Source of the DNA: Tenrec ecaudatus
Taxonomy: Eukaryota; Chordata; Mammalia; Afrosoricida; Tenrecidae
NCBI RefSeq assembly: GCF_050624435.1
Contig: NC_134538.1
Location: forward strand, 123,920,937-123,984,936
Direction of reading: 5' to 3'
DNA length: 64,000 nucleotides
This document shows, one piece after another, positions 9,740 through 41,749 of the stretch. A model generated the notes under the pieces. That model was not told the DNA's origin, ran no database searches, and saw nothing but the letters and a program-made list of their open reading frames with translations. Within the stretch, counting starts at the first letter, position 1; each line of letters begins with the position of its first letter. A program made the position numbers and the translations under genes.

Positions 9740-9987
9740 TTCCCCAACAAAATTCTCATAAGGCTCTCCCTGGTCTCTCCTCCCCTCTCTCCTTGGCTCC
9801 CTCTCCTCCTCTGTTTCCCTTTCCCCTTGTCCCCCTTCCCTTCCCCTCTCTCCACGTGGGCCACCAAGCGGGGCTGAGGTGAGCAATGTGGCTGTGTATT
9901 GTGCTTGAATCCACGATTGTAATATCTCTTTATCTCTCATGCTCTCGATGACTTTAATATAATATATATACATCTCAAAAAATCCTC
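9740..9987 (+). mobile_element. LTR fragment (U5 side), same family as 22.7-23.4 kb
   Basis: The stretch 'ccacgtgggccaccaag', 'ggggctgaggtgagcaat', 'tctctcatgctctcgatga' and the AT-rich end match the reverse complement of about 22740-22880. Only the 3' (U5) part is present. Just 3' of it, after about 60 bp, lies a short L1 in the same orientation. Confidence 0.75.
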
Positions 9988-10050
9988 ATAGGATTGCCTT
10001 CTCTAGCCAAAAAGAATGAGCAGGTGTATTGTTGGGATGTAAAACAAAAC

Positions 10051-10290
10051 TTCCACATCGGACAGTGTAAGATATGACAAAATAATAATTTATAAAGTAT
10101 CGTGTTCATGAGGGAAGGGGGAGCCAGGGAGGGTGGGGAATGAGGAGCTGATACCAAGAGCTTAAGTAGAAAGCAAATGTTTTGAGAATAATGATGGCAA
10201 CAGTACTTGATGATGTACAATGTGCTTGACACAATAGATGGATGTATAGATTGTGTTAAGAGCTGTACAAGCCCCAATAAAATGATTTTT
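10051..10290 (+). mobile_element. 5'-truncated young L1, 3' end only
   Basis: Runs from 'ttccacatcggacag' to 'gccccaataaaatgattttt' and then an A-run. It contains the family 3' UTR words 'ataataatttataaagt' and 'gcttgacacaatagatgg'. An A-rich word near 10041-10050 is repeated after the tail at about 10294-10304, a possible but low-complexity target-site duplication. Confidence 0.85.
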
Positions 10291-11040
10291 AAAAAAACAA
10301 AAACCCTTCCTCAGCACAGCTTCTCTGGCCTGTCTCTCACCAATGCAGTTTTCTGACTTTTGTGAAAATAATAAGCCCCTGAGATCATCCTGCATCCTTC
10401 AGGAAATCTGTCAAGGCTGCTCCTGTGACTTAAACAACAATAGCAACAAGGTCTCCATAGCTTTCGAAACTGACCTCTTTGCCTTGAATTTAACTGACTC
10501 AGCAGGTCCCTTCACAGCCACTGCTTTGATTTGGCAGAGGTCTTTTTAGACTAAAACAAGTGTTATTACTGTGAGATTTTGTCTACCGCCATTGACTAAC
10601 CACAGAGACATATTTAAAACACATTTTGTTTGGAATGAACCTTTTTTTGTTTTTTTTTAATGACCTGGAAACCTATTAGCAATACTTTTTTGACTTCCGC
10701 TTATGTGGGAGTTTCTCTAACTACATCAGCGAGAATGCATTGTGTAGACGTCTTTGGCATAGCTGAGAGTAATTTGAAGCAAGTAGGGCGGTAAAGTTGT
10801 AAAATCTTCTTTCTCCCTATGGGTAATGTTTAAGATTCAGTAGGGTTTTTTCCCCCCCTCTTACAGGTAATTTTCATGACTCCGTTCTAAAACCATCCAC
10901 AACTCCCAGAGAAGATGCTGTGGGTGACTTTGATTAGGACATTATCCTCAAAACATGTTAAGATTGCACAGGGACAAGATAGCCCGTTGTTAGATGGTTT
11001 GCCCTATTATAAAACACGAGGCCAGAATCCTCGACTTGAG
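10291..11040. other. Unrecognised, AT-leaning sequence
   Basis: No exon, RNA gene or repeat family recognised, apart from a T-run near 10640-10660. Confidence 0.35.
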
Positions 11041-19753: not shown

Positions 19754-20552
19754 TCCGCTAGCAAAAGATATAGCGTCTGGGGTCTTAAAGGCTTGAAGAT
19801 AAACAAGTGGCCATCTAGCTGAGAAGCAACAAAGCCCACATGGAAGAAGCGTACCAGTCTTTGAGATCATGGGGTGGCCATAGGATCAGGTATCAAAGAC
19901 CCAGAACAAAAAATCATATCATTGTGAATGAGGAGGAGTGCAGAGTGGAGACCCAAAGCCCATCTGTAGACAATTGGACATCCCCTTACAGAAGAGTGAC
20001 AAGGAAGAGATGAGCCAGTCAGGTGCAGCATAGCACCAATGAAACACACAACTTTCCTCTAGCAATTTAATGTCTCCCCAATATCATGACCCCAATTCTA
20101 CCTCACAAATCCAGCTAGACCAGAGGATGTACACATGTACAGATAAGAGCTGGAAACTCAGGGAATTCAGGACAGACAAAGCCCTCAGGACCAAGATTGA
20201 GCTCGATACCAGGAGGGGAAGGGGAAGGTGAGGAGAGAGAGTGGGGACAGATGCCAATGATCTACATATAATCCCCTCCCAGGGGAAGGACAACAGAAAA
20301 GTGGGTGAAAGGATACATTGGTCAGTGTACGACATGAAAAATAATAATAATTTGCAAATTATCAAGAGTTCATGAGGGAGGGAGGGAAGGTGGGGAAAAT
20401 GAGAAGGTGATACCAAGGGTTCCAGTGGAAAGACAATGTTCTGAAAATGATGAGGGCAACATATGTACAAATGTGCCTGACACAATGGGTGGATGGATGG
20501 ATGGATGGATGGATTGTGATGAGTTGTACGAGCCCCCAATAAAATTTTTTTT
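19754..20552 (+). mobile_element. 5'-truncated young L1 with target-site duplication
   Basis: An insertion of about 800 bp of the young L1 3' UTR, ending AGCCCCCAATAAAATTTTTTTT. The 12 bp duplication AATGGGCAAAAC is at 19742-19753 and 20553-20564. The body has all the family words in sense orientation: 'tatagcgtctggggtctta', 'aagcaacaaagcccacatgg', 'atccagctagaccagagga'. A (GGAT)n run lies at 20488-20513 near the 3' end. The minus-strand 198-codon frame here is antisense to this UTR. Confidence 0.93.
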
Positions 20553-20564
20553 AATGGGCAAAAC

Positions 20565-22657
20565 CAAACCATGTTGTTGAGATGTTGAAACTTAGCAAAA
20601 AAAAAACAAAAACGCAAGGCTGTCATCGTCACGAAAATGTTAACCCCAGGGCTAGAGAGCTCTGATTGGGAAGAGCACACTGGAATTCCAGCAGGTTGGC
20701 AAGGTTCTATTTCTTGACCAGAAGGAGAGTTACATGGGTCTTCACTTTATCATTATGCATCTTCTGTACTTTCAAATATATATACTCTGTTGTAGAGTGG
20801 GGGTGGGGGGCGGGTAAGACCACTTTCTCAGTGATGTAGGAGAACCAAAATCTACAGGTTTTCAAGCTTTACTTATGATCTGCCGAAAAAGGACAATGAA
20901 TTCTTCCAGTTCTACCTTTTCCTCCCTTCCTCTTGAGCTCTTCCACAAGGCTACCTCCCTCAACAGATGGTCCTTTTTTAAAAATTCAGTTCAAACCCAC
21001 CCCCACCCCCTACCATAACTGTAGTCACATATCCAGTTCTCTCTTGGGTCTAGTTTATGTCACAAGGAGACATCTGTTCTTGGCAGGCTTCAGGTGTGAC
21101 TGTCAGGTGACATAGAAAACTATCAGTTCAGGGGAGGAGGGACACAACAGAGAGAACAACTTCTAGTACAACTTACAACATTCAGTGAGCCCCCTCTCCC
21201 CTCTTGAAGAACGAGCCATGCATATAAAGAACTGCTTTGCTCGTTCAGAATTGAGAAGCCAGCTACCTCAGCTGGCCACAGCATTCCAGAGAGACTAGCA
21301 GGCCCTTTTTCAAGGAGAATTAGCTCCCTTGTGAGCTTGCTATGACATGGTCTGGGACCATCTACAATCCCTGCACGAAAGAACAACTTGAGGAACAAAT
21401 CCATAATGGAAAGTTTTATTCTTAAGACTCCTCGGAAGGTTCTTCTTAGTATCCTTAGAGAAACCGCCTTTGCTAGTAGGTCCCAACCGTTGCCCCTGTT
21501 GGACCCAGCAGGGGCAACTAGAATCAGCAGTCTGAGTGAGAATCTTGTCTGAAATGTCACCTCTCCGGCAAACGCTTTTCTCCTTTTGGCCTAGCAGGAT
21601 TCCGTCCTGATCCACAGCACCGGGGAGTCTGCACACACTTCCCGCTCTCTGCCCCACTCCCCTGCCTCCAGGGCTTGCTGCATGAAAGGATGCATTTGCC
21701 CAAAACAACCAGCCAGTCAATACAAAGCAGAAATGTGAGCTCTAGCTTGAGCCTGTTCTGTTTCCTTGGATTTGAAATCATCACCTTTGATCTTAATCTA
21801 CGGTAACCATGGTTTCCGAATCCTTCTTTCAGTTACTATGAGCAGTTGCATAAAGGAGATGTTGAGTTTAATCTTTTAAACCCCGTCTGAAATCCTGCAC
21901 TGGTCTGGTGGCAGCTTACTTATACAATGAACTTGAGACCCTGCTTTCAAAGGTACCCAGTGCTGTCAGAGCTGAGCAGTTCCATTTTCAGGGCCCTCGA
22001 CTTGGAGAGGATCTCAGCCCCAACCAGCCTTTACCCAGGTGTGGAAACATCTCCTCCTACCCAGTTCCCACCTCCCGGCTGAGGCTCCCTCCCTCAAGCT
22101 ATTTTAACACGATCTCATCTGGCAGAATACATTTCCCAAGACCGCTCCATTTGTCTGGTCTCTTCCCACAGTCCTCCGAATCAAGAACCAAATTCTAACC
22201 TTGACAACCTCAACTTCCCAACAGGTACTTCCTGGAATCATTCTGCACCTCCTCTCTAAATTTTTTTGTTCCACTTTCCACCCAATCAAACCTTTCCAGG
22301 TCCAGCCCAAACCCCTTGGCACCATGGCCCCCCTGACCCTGGCCCATAGCTGTATCGTCCGGTTCTGACATTGAGTCCTCTGTGTCTCCCTCTCTAGGTA
22401 CCGAATGGAATCCTGCCTTGTCTTCCTATTTACCTTTGCTTAGTGGGGTGGGTTTGCCAATCCTTACTGTGGTTTCTCTGAGGGGAGAAGAGAACTCTAC
22501 TTTATACTTTTACCCACAAATGATGCCTATACTGTGTTCAATAAGCATGTGCTGGGTAAAAACTCGTTTGTACCCTCACCCCATAGTCTTCATGAAGCCT
22601 CCAAAGGCCTCCTCTTTTCTTCCCCACTTGATTTACCTGTAACCACTGTCTAAGAAG
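20565..22657. other. Mostly unrecognised; L2-like words at 22330-22560
   Basis: The stretch 22330-22560 has L2-3'-like phrases ('tgtgttcaataagcatgtgctggg' class wording), too diverged for a firm call. The rest shows no exon or repeat I recognise. Confidence 0.35.
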
Positions 22658-33340: not shown

Positions 33341-34649
33341 AAGATCTACTTAACATTCCATAATTGCTTGTGGTCTTTTGTGGTAGCAAAGCTGAAATTG
33401 GCTGGCTTGTCCGTCATTCTTTCAGGCAATACTCACAACGATAGCATTACATGCCCATTGAATAAACAGAAAGCATTGGTCGAAGGACCAAATTCACTCC
33501 AACTATGCACTTGGCAACTGGGCTTGTTAGGGACTGAACGCACATATCTGAGGAGAGAATTTTCTCCATTCGCAATATTCCCTCTGTGCAAATGTGTCAC
33601 AGTATCCTACTCCCAGAAAGGGTATTTAACCCAGAAAATCAAATCCTAATGCATTTCTTCTCATCTGTAATTGCTCTTCTAAAGTTCTCTTTCATTGGCC
33701 TCAGGAAACCCTGCCCCTGCCACAGCTGCTGCTCTCTCTTAAGATCTCTCTGTCAGCATTCCTACCTGACAGAAAGGTCAGACCACATTGTCAGTCAGTG
33801 AATCTCAGGGAGGGCTTTCTCGTGTCATTGGATTTCATCTGGACCCACTGTCACGCTCCTTCTGCCCCCGACCCCCGTACCAGGCTCGACCGCTGGTTTC
33901 CAGGATGCTCTCAGGAATCTCCTAAGCATTTGCCTTGTGGTCTCAAATATTCTGTAGCATCATTTACTTCCTCAAATCACTTGTCTGGGACTAGATGTCA
34001 GTGGGATCTGACTGTGCAGAAAAGACCAAGATGGCAAGTCCAGCTGCTCGATACAGTGTAGCAGTTGCCACCGTCAAAGAGAGGCAGACATTTGCCTGAA
34101 GAAGAGAAGGATTTAGGACTACAACACGCACCATGGAGTGTGACAGCTACTGTTAGAAACTCAATATGTGAATGTTTCATGAATAAATAAATGTGGCTTA
34201 AATATTTACCCAGGCAGCCCCCTTTTTAGAAGCAATCCAGCTTTGCTACCTAGAAGGCTTGCCCAATCCCACTTTGTGCAGAGCTGCCTGGGAGGAAAGC
34301 CCCAGCAATCAGAACGTAACCTGCACGAGGACTTATGTACTTAACCTACGTGGCTTGAGCAATGGCTTTGCCGTTCTGGAATTAGGCTCACGCTCCCACC
34401 CGGTTTAGCAGTCTCCGGAGCAGCCGTTCTCGCCTGCAGGAATGGGTGGCAAAGACGCATTGGAACCACCTAAGGAAGTTCTCCAAACTGCAGAAGTTCC
34501 ACCTGCAGCACGCCCTCTTTCCAACAAATCCTGATCTGATCTGGATAGGAGAGGAACTATCTAGTTCTGCACAAGCTTTCAGATCCTCTGAATACATCTC
34601 TGCATGCACTTCCGTCCCTTCCACCCCATGTACACCTTTCCATAGAGAA
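33341..34649. other. Unrecognised sequence
   Basis: No exon, RNA gene or repeat recognised. It ends at the left target-site duplication of the L1. Confidence 0.35.
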
Positions 34650-34666
34650 GAACCAGCCCTTTTCTT

Positions 34667-36732
34667 TCTTTTTTTAAATTATTTTATTGGGGGCTCATAC
34701 AACTCTCATCACAATCCATGCATACATCCATTGTGTCAAGCAGATTTGTACATTTGTTGCCATCATCATTCTCAAAACATTTGCTTTAAAAAAATATTTG
34801 CTTTCTGCTTGAGCCCTTGTTATCAGCTCCTCATTTTCCTCTCCCTCCACACCCCCTGCTTCCTCATGAACCCTTGATAATTTATAAATTATTATTTTTT
34901 CATATCTTGCCCTGTCCGACATCTCCCTTCACCCGCTTTTCTGTTGTCCATTGCCCAGGGAGGAGGTCACATGTAGATCCTTGTAATCGGTTCCCCCTCT
35001 CTACCCCACCCTCTCTACACCCTCCAGTATCACCACTCTCAGCACTGGTCCTGAAGGGATCATCTGTCCTGGATTCCCTGTGTTTCCAGTCTCTATCTGT
35101 CCCAGTGTACATCCTCTGGTCTAGCCAGATTTGTAAAGTAGAATAGGGATCATGATAGTGGTGGGGAGGAAACATTTAGGAACTGAAGGAAAGTTGTATG
35201 TTTCATTGTTGCTACACTGCACCCAGACTAGCTTGTCTCCTCCCCATGACCCTTCTGTAAGGGAATGTCCAGTTGCCTACAGATGGGTCTTGGGTCCCCA
35301 ATCTGCACACACACACCCCTCATTCACAATGATTTGATTTTTTGTTCTGTGATGCCTGATCCCTTCGACATCTCATGACCACACAGGCTGGTATGCTTCT
35401 TCCATGTGGGCTTTGTTGCTTCTGAGCTAGATGGCCACTTGTTTACCTTCAAGCTTTTAAGACCTCAGACACTATATATTTTGATAGCCGGGCTCCATCA
35501 GCTTTCTTCGCCGCATTTGCTTATGCACCCGCTTTGTCTTCAGTGATCATGTTGGGAAGGTGAGCATCATGAAATGCCAGTTTAATAGAACAAAGTATTC
35601 TTGCATTGAGGGAGTACTTGAGTGGAGGCCCAATGTCCATCTGCTACCTTAATACTAACCCTCTAAATATATGCACATAGATCTATTTCCCCATCCTCAT
35701 ATATAAACATACTTACATGTGTACATGCCTTTATTTAGACCTCTATAAATGCCCATTTACCTCCTAGTCCGTTCCTCTATTTCCTTTTGCCTTTGTCTCA
35801 TCCCACTATCATGCTCAGCCTTCATTTGGGTTTCAGTAATTCCTCTTGGTTACATTACTTTTGATCATGCCCTACCAGGCCTCCTACACCCTCCTCACCA
35901 CATATTTGGATCACTTGTTGTTCCCTTGTCCCTGTGTTTTTTAACACCACTTCCTTTCCCCCACCTCCCCCTTTCCAATGTCCCCCTAAACCGTCGGTCC
36001 TGTTGTTTTCTCCTCCAGATTGTTCATCCAGCCTATCTTATTTATACAGACCTTCGAAGACAATAACTTGCACAAAACAAGACAGAGCAAAACAGAGTAA
36101 CAAAAGAAAACAAAACATGAACAACAACAAAAACTTAATGACAAAACAACAACAACAAAAAGGAAAAAAGCCTGTGGTTAGTTCAAGGACTATTTGTTGG
36201 CCTTTTGGGGTGTTTTCCAGTTGAGTTTGATGGGGTGCTAAGTCCTGACCCCAAAGTCTATTTTTGGGGACTTCATTGCTCTGTTCCCCTTGCTGTTCTG
36301 TTGCATGCCCTTAGTGTTTTGCCTCAGTGTGGTGGGATCAGATCAGGTGGAATTCCCACACTGTGTCTCCAGTGTTGTCCCCTGTAGGGCTATGGGTCAA
36401 TGAGGAATGTCATGTCTCATAGTGGGGCCAGCCATATGGTCTTCTCTGTGGATTGGCTGCTCTGAGTGGGAATATCATCCTCAAGGGTTGGTGGGCAAGA
36501 ATGTGCTCCATTCTCTCTTCCTCCCCCTTCATTTGCTCCCATGTGCTCTGATCAGACATGTCCCTCTCCCTGAGCTGTAGCTTCGGTGGTGTCCTCTGAA
36601 ATAAATTCTTCTGGGGGAAGGGACAGGTGTCCCCATAGTTGAGATTGAGGCCGGTCCCTAAGACCGCTCCACTGGTTCCATACTTCATGCTGCTATGTTG
36701 CATTCACATCTTGGAGCTCTGGGTTGAAGTCT
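34667..36732 (-). mobile_element. 5'-truncated young L1, about 2.07 kb of 3' UTR
   Basis: The longest copy of the family in the window. Its target-site duplication is GAACCAGCCCTTTTCTT (34650-34666) and GAACCAGCTCTTTTCAT (36733-36749). Reading the minus strand, the sequence starts upstream of the UTR parts seen in the other copies, includes an A/C-rich low-complexity stretch at 36065-36170, and ends at AGCCCCCAATAAAATAATTT. I recognise no ORF2 codons, so what is present is all 3' untranslated or the extreme 3' end of the LINE. Confidence 0.92.
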
Positions 36733-37330: not shown

Positions 37331-38655
37331 AATTTCATTTGCGCGTCATAGTAATTATACTGTTCTATAGTTGTGCATTCTGTGGGGTTACCTTTCTTTG
37401 GAAAAGTACAAATATGGATCTCTTCCAGCCGGTTGGCTAAGTAGCTGTCTGCCATATTTCTTGGCATAGACAAGGGAGCACGTCTGGTGTTTCCTGAACT
37501 TATTGGAACTTTCAGTGCGTAGTCCACTCATGCCTAGAACCTTGTTTCAGCACAGCTTAGACTCCTTCCTTCAGTACCACTGGTTCTTGATTGTATGCTA
37601 CTGCTTGAATTGATTAAATATCAACTAATTCCTTTTGATACAGTGACACTAGGTTTTCCTTCATCTTCCTTGGATGCTACTTGTATTGTTCAATATTTTG
37701 CACATAGAATCTTTCAATATTGCAACCCAGGCTTGAATTTTTTCTTGAGTTTTTTCAGTTTAGGATATGCCAAACATATTCTTCCTTTGTGATTTTTTAA
37801 CTCTAGCCCTTTGCACATTTTGCTATACTATTTGACTCTGTCTTCTTGAGCTGTCCTTTGAAATTTTCTGTTTACCTCTTTGACTTTATTGTTTCTTCCA
37901 TTTGCCTTAGCTACTATATGATTAAGAGCAAGTTTCAGAGACTCTTCTGGCATACACTTTGATCTTTTCTTTCATTCCTGTCTTTTTAATGAACTTTTTG
38001 CTTTCTTTGTCTATGATATTCTTGATGTCATCCCACAGCTCATCAAGTCTTCCATCATCAGTGTTCATTGTATCAAATCTGCATTTCAGATAGTTTCAAA
38101 ATTCAAGTGGATTATACTCAAGGTCATATTTTGACTCTTGAGATTTATGTTAATTTTCTTCAGCTTCAACCTGAACTTACATATAAACAGTTGATATTCT
38201 GTACCACAGTTGGCCCCAAGCCTTGTTTCAGCTACTGATAATGAGTTTCTCCATCATTCTCTGCCCACAATATAGTCAATTTGATTTTTGTGTATTCCAT
38301 CTGGAGAAGAAGTCCAGATGAGAGTCGCCTTTTTTGTTTTTGCAATGAAGAAGTAGTTGGTCTTACAAAATCCTGTTATGCATTCTCCAGCCTCGTTTCT
38401 GTCACCAAGGCTATATATTCCAACTACTGTTCTTCCCTCTTAATTTCCAACACTTGCATTCCAATCACCAATAATTGTCAATGCATCTTGATTTTATGTT
38501 TCAGTCTGAAGACATCTGTAAAATTCTTCAATTTCTGCACCAATAACTTTAGTGGTTGGTGCATACATTTGAATAAATAGTTGTATTGACTGGATTTCCT
38601 TGTATGCAAATAAATACTCTATCACAGACAGCATTGTATTTCAAGGTAGATCTTT

Positions 38656-39179
38656 TTCTCTTTTTAATAATTTTATTGGGGGCGTATACAACTGTTATCA
38701 CAAGCCATCCATCCATTGTGTCAGACACATTTGTATATTTGTTGCCCACATCCTTCTCAAAACATTTGCTTTCTACTTGAGCCCTTGATATCAGCTCCTC
38801 ATTCCCGCCCCCCTCCCCGTCCCCTCTCTCACAAACCCTTGATAATTTATAAATTATTATTATTTTATCATGTTTTACACAGTCCAATGTCTCCTTTCAC
38901 CCACTTTTCTGTTGTTCGTCCCCCAGGGAGGGGGGTATATGTAGATTCCTGTGATGGGTTCCCCCTTTCTACCCCACCATCCCTCCTCCCTCCCAATATT
39001 GATACTCTCACCACTGATCCTGAAGGGTTCATCTGTCCTGGATTCTTGTGTTTTCGGTTACTATCTGTACCAGTGTATATCCTCTGGTCTAGCTGAATTT
39101 TTAAAATAGAATTGGGACTATGATAGTGAGGGGGTGGCGCATTTAAGAACTAGAGGAAAGTTGTATGTTTTGTCATTGC
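38656..39179 (-). mobile_element. 5'-truncated young L1 nested in the RTE
   Basis: A 0.52 kb insertion of L1 3' UTR with a target-site duplication: TCAAGGTAGATCTTT (38641-38655) and TCAAGATAGATCTTT (39180-39194). The duplication is RTE sequence, so the L1 is the younger element. Confidence 0.92.
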
Positions 39180-41334: not shown

Positions 41335-41475
41335 CAAAAAGCAAACTCACCACCATCACATTGATGCTGACTCGTAGTGACCCTGTAGCACTGGGTTTCT
41401 GAGACTGTAACTCTCTATGGAAGTAGAAAGCCCCATCTTTCTAGTCAAGGGCAAACCATTAGTGCTATTCAGGGA
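41335..41475 (-). mobile_element. AfroSINE-type SINE, 3' half
   Basis: 'gcaaactcaccaccatcaca', 'gactcgtagtgaccctgtag' and 'agccccatctttctagtcaa' are in reverse-complement order. The 5' half is missing. Confidence 0.7.
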
Positions 41476-41550
41476 CCTTCAAAATAGAGGTTAGCGATGA
41501 ATTCAGAGCTAGGACGTTTCCCCACCGGGACTGAATGGCATATTCTAGGG

Positions 41551-41741
41551 TAGCGGTTCTCCAACTGTGGGTCACGACCCCTTTGGGGGTCGAACGACCC
41601 TTTCACAGGGGCCTCCCGATTCATAGCAGTAGCAAAATTACAGTTATGAAGTAGGAACGAAAATAATTTATGGTTGGGAGCCCCCACAACATGAGGAAAT
41701 GTATTAGAGGGTCACAGCATTAGGAAGGTTGAGAACCACTG
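41551..41741 (-). mobile_element. Non-autonomous SPIN-type hAT element
   Basis: A 191 bp element with hAT terminal inverted repeats: CAGTGGTTCTCAACC on the minus strand (end at 41741) and TAGCGGTTCTCCAAC at 41551. Internal words 'gggtcgaacgaccctttcac' and 'ataatttatggttggg' are those of SPIN_NA. It is flanked by an 8 bp target-site duplication, TTCTAGGG (41543-41550) and TTCTTGGG (41742-41749). There is no transposase, so it was mobilised in trans. Confidence 0.93.
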
Positions 41742-41749
41742 TTCTTGGG

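What the first reader, a model, noticed from the sequence alone, without database searches (positions are those of the whole stretch)
41543..41749. SPIN-type hAT element with an 8 bp target-site duplication
The sequence shows hAT-type terminal repeats (CAGTGGTTCTCAACC class), SPIN_NA internal words and flanks TTCTAGGG/TTCTTGGG. SPIN is known for repeated horizontal transfer among tetrapods, and tenrec is one of the mammals reported to carry it (Pace et al. 2008, from memory). This is the best evidence of lateral acquisition in the window and the strongest pointer to tenrec.
Basis: partly seen in the sequence, partly recalled or inferred. Interest (0 to 1): 0.75.

Follow-up and report, generated by a model that had tools for sequence, protein, structure and literature searches.

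The report
A small decayed jumping gene (SPIN)
This is one dead copy of a short DNA transposon, most likely of the SPIN type, a family known to have jumped between animal species; it is genuine but ordinary, one of very many such copies in this tenrec-like mammal genome.

Summary
Window 41551-41741 is a 191-bp copy of a multi-copy, non-autonomous hAT (Buster-type) transposon, flanked by an 8-bp target-site duplication matching at 7 of 8. The source genome has 39 other scored near-full-length copies at 87-90% (40 of 5,267 candidates scored). Across 30 copies, this one included, 8-bp flanks match 83%, against 15-41% at other lengths, with Buster-type target nnnTAnnn. The 192-bp class equals a 486-bp class minus 294 internal bases. 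Of 44 joined insertion sites, 9 have an empty paralogous match, 6 of them ungapped. This copy is 6.6% from consensus, about 22 My at the published tenrec rate. The name SPIN rests on published host range and age, target type and recalled sequence; no SPIN consensus or transposase could be checked. Horizontal transfer is the literature's claim, not tested. Tenrec is likely from genome size and contig number, not proven. Orthologous sites in other afrotherians were not testable. An ordinary member of a known family.

The parts
41543..41550 (+). left target-site duplication TTCTAGGG (fits nnnTAnnn)
   Evidence: 7 of 8 with right copy
41551..41741 (+). SPIN-type hAT (Buster) non-autonomous element, 191 bp, of the 192-bp internal-deletion class
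   Evidence: 93.7% to consensus of 29 other copies; 39 other scored genomic relatives; first 66 + last 126 bp of a 486-bp element
41551..41566 (+). 5' terminal inverted repeat, decayed (family CAGYGGTTCTCAACCT)
41616..41617 (+). internal deletion junction relative to the 486-bp element (294 bp missing; family columns 66|67)
41726..41741 (-). 3' terminal inverted repeat AGGTTGAGAACCACTG
41742..41749 (+). right target-site duplication TTCTTGGG

Best explanation
A dead, non-autonomous copy of a SPIN-type hAT transposon of the Buster group. Its ancestor was a 486-bp internally deleted element that lost another 294 bp and was still recognised through its 16-bp ends. A transposase made elsewhere cut it out and pasted it at an nnnTAnnn target, leaving an 8-bp staggered-cut duplication. 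It then decayed neutrally. Shown: ends, duplication, multi-copy family, target preference, deletion junction, empty paralogous sites for some sister copies. Inferred: that the transposase was SPIN's, that the family entered this lineage horizontally, and the age (about 20-40 My).
For: 39 other scored near-full-length copies. TSD length and target signal, Buster consensus nnnTAnnn (PMC3517528 passages); SPIN placed in the Buster group (PMC3499496 passage). 486-bp class: 8 of 9 copies have TSD at 6-8 of 8, one at 3 of 8. Related empty sites: 9 of 44 joined sites have a spanning paralogous match, 6 of them ungapped over the junction. Divergence 6.6% for the window copy and a mean of 7.2% over the 30 selected copies; 7.7, 9.7 and 11.4% for three full-length copies met by chance, 3.3% for a 92-bp fragment met the same way. 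At 2.9173e-9 per site per year (PMC4079192 passage quoting Pace 2008) this is 22.5 My for this copy, 26-39 My for the three and 11.5 My for the fragment, against 15-46 My reported for SPIN transfers.
Against: No published SPIN consensus could be read or searched. No SPIN transposase found: 7 of the 147 PF05699 matches were read and all seven belong to another hAT family. Related hAT families (OC1 is reported in tenrec) are excluded only by recalled sequence. 9 of 30 copies have TSDs below 7 of 8. Without CpG columns the 30 copies average 4.8%, which would give a younger age.
Confidence: 0.87

Rival explanations
1. A different Buster-type hAT family (OC1, ET, hAT1 or an unnamed one) with similar ends, moved by its own transposase.
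For: OC1 is reported in tenrec, 6,837 copies at 8.1% (PMC3621081 table passage); the SPIN name rests partly on recall; the Buster target consensus is shared by the group.
Confidence: 0.1
2. An old mammalian hAT-Charlie type repeat inherited vertically, so no lateral acquisition is involved.
For: hAT repeats are common in mammals (general knowledge); orthologous sites were not examined.
Against: Divergence 6.6% for this copy and 7.7-11.4% for three chance-met full-length copies corresponds to about 22-39 My at the tenrec rate, younger than the tenrec/golden mole split of 49.4 (45.1-53.6) Mya (PMC13063843 section 13).
Confidence: 0.06
3. Chance resemblance: no element at all.
For: None.
Against: 288 bits versus at most 30.1 in 40 resampled windows; 39 other genomic copies; family-wide TSD.
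Confidence: 0.002

Closest known systems
SPIN_NA (SPACE INVADERS non-autonomous hAT elements), e.g. SPIN_NA_1_Et (name seen in PMC3183009 passage)
   Same: hAT of the Buster group, tenrec reported as host, age range; ends and internal words as recalled
   Different: no letter-by-letter comparison possible; whether the 192-bp deletion class has its own published name was not determined
OposCharlie1 (OC1)
   Same: horizontally transferred hAT, reported in tenrec
   Different: sequence not available here; difference rests on recall
Mar MITE of Drosophila willistoni (Buster)
   Same: MITE of the Buster group with TSD nnnTAnnn, thought to derive by internal deletion (PMC3517528 passages)
   Different: different family and host; sequences not compared here

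Membership tests
hAT superfamily | 8-bp target-site duplication | tested here: met
   83% identity at 8 bp versus 15-41% at 4-7 and 9-11 bp over 30 copies; 21 of 30 at 7 or 8 of 8
hAT superfamily | short terminal inverted repeats beginning CAG | tested here: met
   16-bp ends, 15 of 16 complementary in both consensuses; the window copy itself begins TAG
hAT, Buster group | target consensus nnnTAnnn | tested here: met
   T in 29 of 30 and A in 26 of 30 left flanks at positions 4-5; consensus from PMC3517528
hAT, Buster group | Buster-type transposase in an autonomous partner | tested here: inconclusive
   147 PF05699 matches among 150 scored of 1,024 candidates; 7 read, all of another hAT family; 140 not read
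SPIN | close nucleotide identity to a published SPIN consensus | not testable with these tools
   primary papers not held; exact patterns in viral and prokaryote genome contigs and blastn in plasmids gave no match, and these hold little vertebrate DNA
SPIN | patchy host range with young copies (15-46 My) including tenrec | tested here: inconclusive
   age broadly fits; host fits but the species is unproven; other hosts not searchable
MITE (non-autonomous) | no coding capacity, internal deletion of a longer element | tested here: met
   longest stop-free stretch 53 codons in the window copy, 43 in the 192-bp and 80 in the 486-bp consensus; first 66 + last 126 bp of the 486-bp class. An autonomous parent was not found.

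The most novel reading that the evidence does not exclude
The genome is a tenrec other than Echinops telfairi, so SPIN, with several deletion classes (486, 192 and a single 220-bp copy seen), either dates the invasion to before the spiny-tenrec split or records a separate transfer into a second tenrec lineage.
Probability: 0.3. Interest if true: 0.35.

Novelty: already known. Interest (0 to 1): 0.2.

Why it matters
SPIN is one of the best-known cases of DNA moving between vertebrate species. A dated set of copies in a chromosome-scale tenrec-like genome could serve as presence/absence markers to place the invasion relative to the tenrec radiation. This single copy adds little by itself.

Tried and rejected
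Autonomous partner: seven PF05699 loci (L056-L062), picked for long open frames or odd match lengths and not at random, were read in the hope of a SPIN transposase. All seven belong to one other hAT family (ends ATAAGGTGACCAGA.../...TCTGGTCACCTTAT read in L056), so the idea that they mobilised this element was dropped. L060 carries a 486-type SPIN copy next to such a remnant; taken as coincidence.

Relatives elsewhere: exact-pattern scans of viral contigs and prokaryote genomes, a blastn of plasmids and a protein search with an incidental 43-aa reading gave nothing; these collections hold little vertebrate DNA, so this says little. A related-loci scan with an unrelated repeat frame of the window was off the question. 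Rfam and tRNA scans of the window gave nothing. Literature searches with sequence strings gave nothing usable; the underscore in one term was dropped and matched unrelated words.

Species: a mitochondrial 16S motif had no exact match; cytochrome b (PF00033) and COX1 (PF00115) searches did not complete.

A first alignment of the 30 copies had minus-strand loci unturned and was replaced. Single-strand folding of the element: z -2.8; not used.

Full report
What is there. Positions 41551-41741 hold a 191-bp element with imperfect 16-bp terminal inverted repeats, flanked by TTCTAGGG and TTCTTGGG, 7 of 8 identical. It is the only copy found in the 64-kb window. The source genome (G000, 3,918,315,410 bases, 2,140 contigs) holds many more: 40 of 5,267 first-look candidates were scored, all 40 match over nearly the full length, and the 39 other than the window copy are at 87-90%. 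A consensus made without the window copy matches it at 93.7%, 288 bits, against at most 30.1 bits in 40 resampled windows.

Mode of movement. In 30 fetched copies (the most similar 30, the window copy included, so not a random sample) the 8 bases on either side agree at 83% of positions; other assumed lengths give 15-41%. 21 of 30 match at 7 or 8 of 8 (20 of 29 without the window copy); the other nine match at 6 (3 copies), 5 (3), 4 (2) and 3 (1). Mismatched left and right flanks reach 7 or more in 37 of 870 pairings. The target consensus is nnnTAnnn (T 29 of 30, A 26 of 30, left flanks), which PMC3517528 gives as the Buster consensus (passages read); PMC3499496 places SPIN in the Buster group (passage read).

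Empty sites. The flanks of 44 copies were joined and compared with the G000 letters then held (334 kb in 58 records, window included, some overlapping). Nine sites have a paralogous match spanning the junction. Six of these have no gap near it (L003, L015, L023, L028, L053, L054), with best-match identities of 68, 76, 69, 72, 70 and 81%; so three are weak, and L015 itself has a TSD of only 4 of 8. Three (L010, L012, L055) have gaps near the junction. The other 35 had no such match. One empty counterpart of L054 is in this window at 37811-37976. So some sister copies sit in pre-existing repeats as insertions. The window copy itself had no such match.

Anatomy. A longer relative was met by chance in a sampled stretch (L035 1131-1771, with a nested insert). 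Its middle part has 40 scored matches of 4,732 candidates. Nine full-length copies give a 486-bp consensus with the same ends; 8 of 9 have TSDs at 6-8 of 8 and one at 3 of 8; mean divergence 8.4%. Three of the twelve loci were left out of that count: L044 is the L035 copy again, and L046 and L050 had no full 5' end in the comparison. The 192-bp consensus matches positions 1-66 and 361-486 of it (63 of 66 and 123 of 126), so it lacks 294 internal bases. A single 220-bp copy (L025 682-901) has a different deletion (about 69|330) and a perfect 8-bp TSD. Longest stop-free stretches are 43 codons (192-bp consensus), 80 (486-bp consensus), 50 (the 220-bp copy) and 53 (window copy).

Age and number. 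The window copy is 6.6% from consensus; the 30 selected copies average 7.2%, or 4.8% without CpG columns. Copies met by chance: 7.7, 9.7 and 11.4% full length, 3.3% for a 92-bp fragment. With the tenrec rate 2.9173e-9 quoted from Pace 2008 in PMC4079192 (passage), the window copy is 22.5 My and the others 11.5-39 My. PMC5857283 (passage) gives 15-46 My for SPIN transfers into galago, murine rodents, opossum, tenrec and vesper bats. Seven further copies of any class, one of them a fragment, lie in roughly 317 kb of letters outside the copies that brought each stretch in (added up by hand): about 22 per Mb, or very roughly 35,000-180,000 in the genome. About 133 of the 317 kb flank copies of this family or other hAT remnants, so this is only an order of magnitude. 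In the 120 kb of sampled stretches alone there were 2 (L035, L038); an 18-20 bp end-only match in L037 was not counted.

Host. The genome size is near that of Tenrec ecaudatus (4.06 and 3.44 Gb haplotypes; PMC13063843 outline, section 12 and part 1 of section 13), though the contig number (2,140) and longest contig seen (322.6 Mb) differ from that paper's 5,663/3,611 and 294-295 Mb, so it is not that assembly as published. At least 19 contigs reach 60 Mb (coordinates), more than the 13-17 chromosomes of golden moles by the 2n = 26-34 that paper gives, if one contig stands for one chromosome. An AfroSINE-like stretch (recognised from memory; weak self-matches only) lies just upstream at about 41340-41465. 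Mitochondrial typing failed (no match; other searches unanswered). So a tenrec is likely, the species is open.

What is not shown. No SPIN consensus could be read (not held), so the family name rests on recall plus Buster-type features, host and age. Horizontal transfer is the literature's conclusion about the family; nothing here tests it. Seven hAT transposase loci read in this genome belong to another family; 140 of 147 were not read. Orthologous empty sites could not be tested, since no other mammal is held.

Verdict. The finding is an ordinary member of a well-described family in a host group already reported to carry it, hence low interest.

Noticed in passing
L056 1533-2932, L057, L058-L062 (genome G000): A second multi-copy hAT family with transposase remnants (PF05699), ends ATAAGGTGACCAGA.../...TCTGGTCACCTTAT read in L056, about 79-91% between the seven copies; no SPIN ends.
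   Followed up: partly
window 9975-10310(-), 20084-20746(-), 34386-35146(+), 38671-39096(+): A repeat with a recurring reading like IHPLCQAHLYICC, seen in four stretches of the window; identity not determined.
   Followed up: no
window about 41340-41465: AfroSINE-like stretch (recalled) just upstream of the element, with weak self-matches elsewhere in the window.
   Followed up: partly
L025 682-901: A 220-bp deletion variant of the same transposon with a perfect 8-bp duplication, 82-89% to the 486-bp consensus: possibly an older class; copy number not searched.
   Followed up: partly
L035 about 1544-1693: A 486-type copy split by a later insert with flanking direct repeats and an A-rich edge, suggesting retrotransposition into it.
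   Followed up: no
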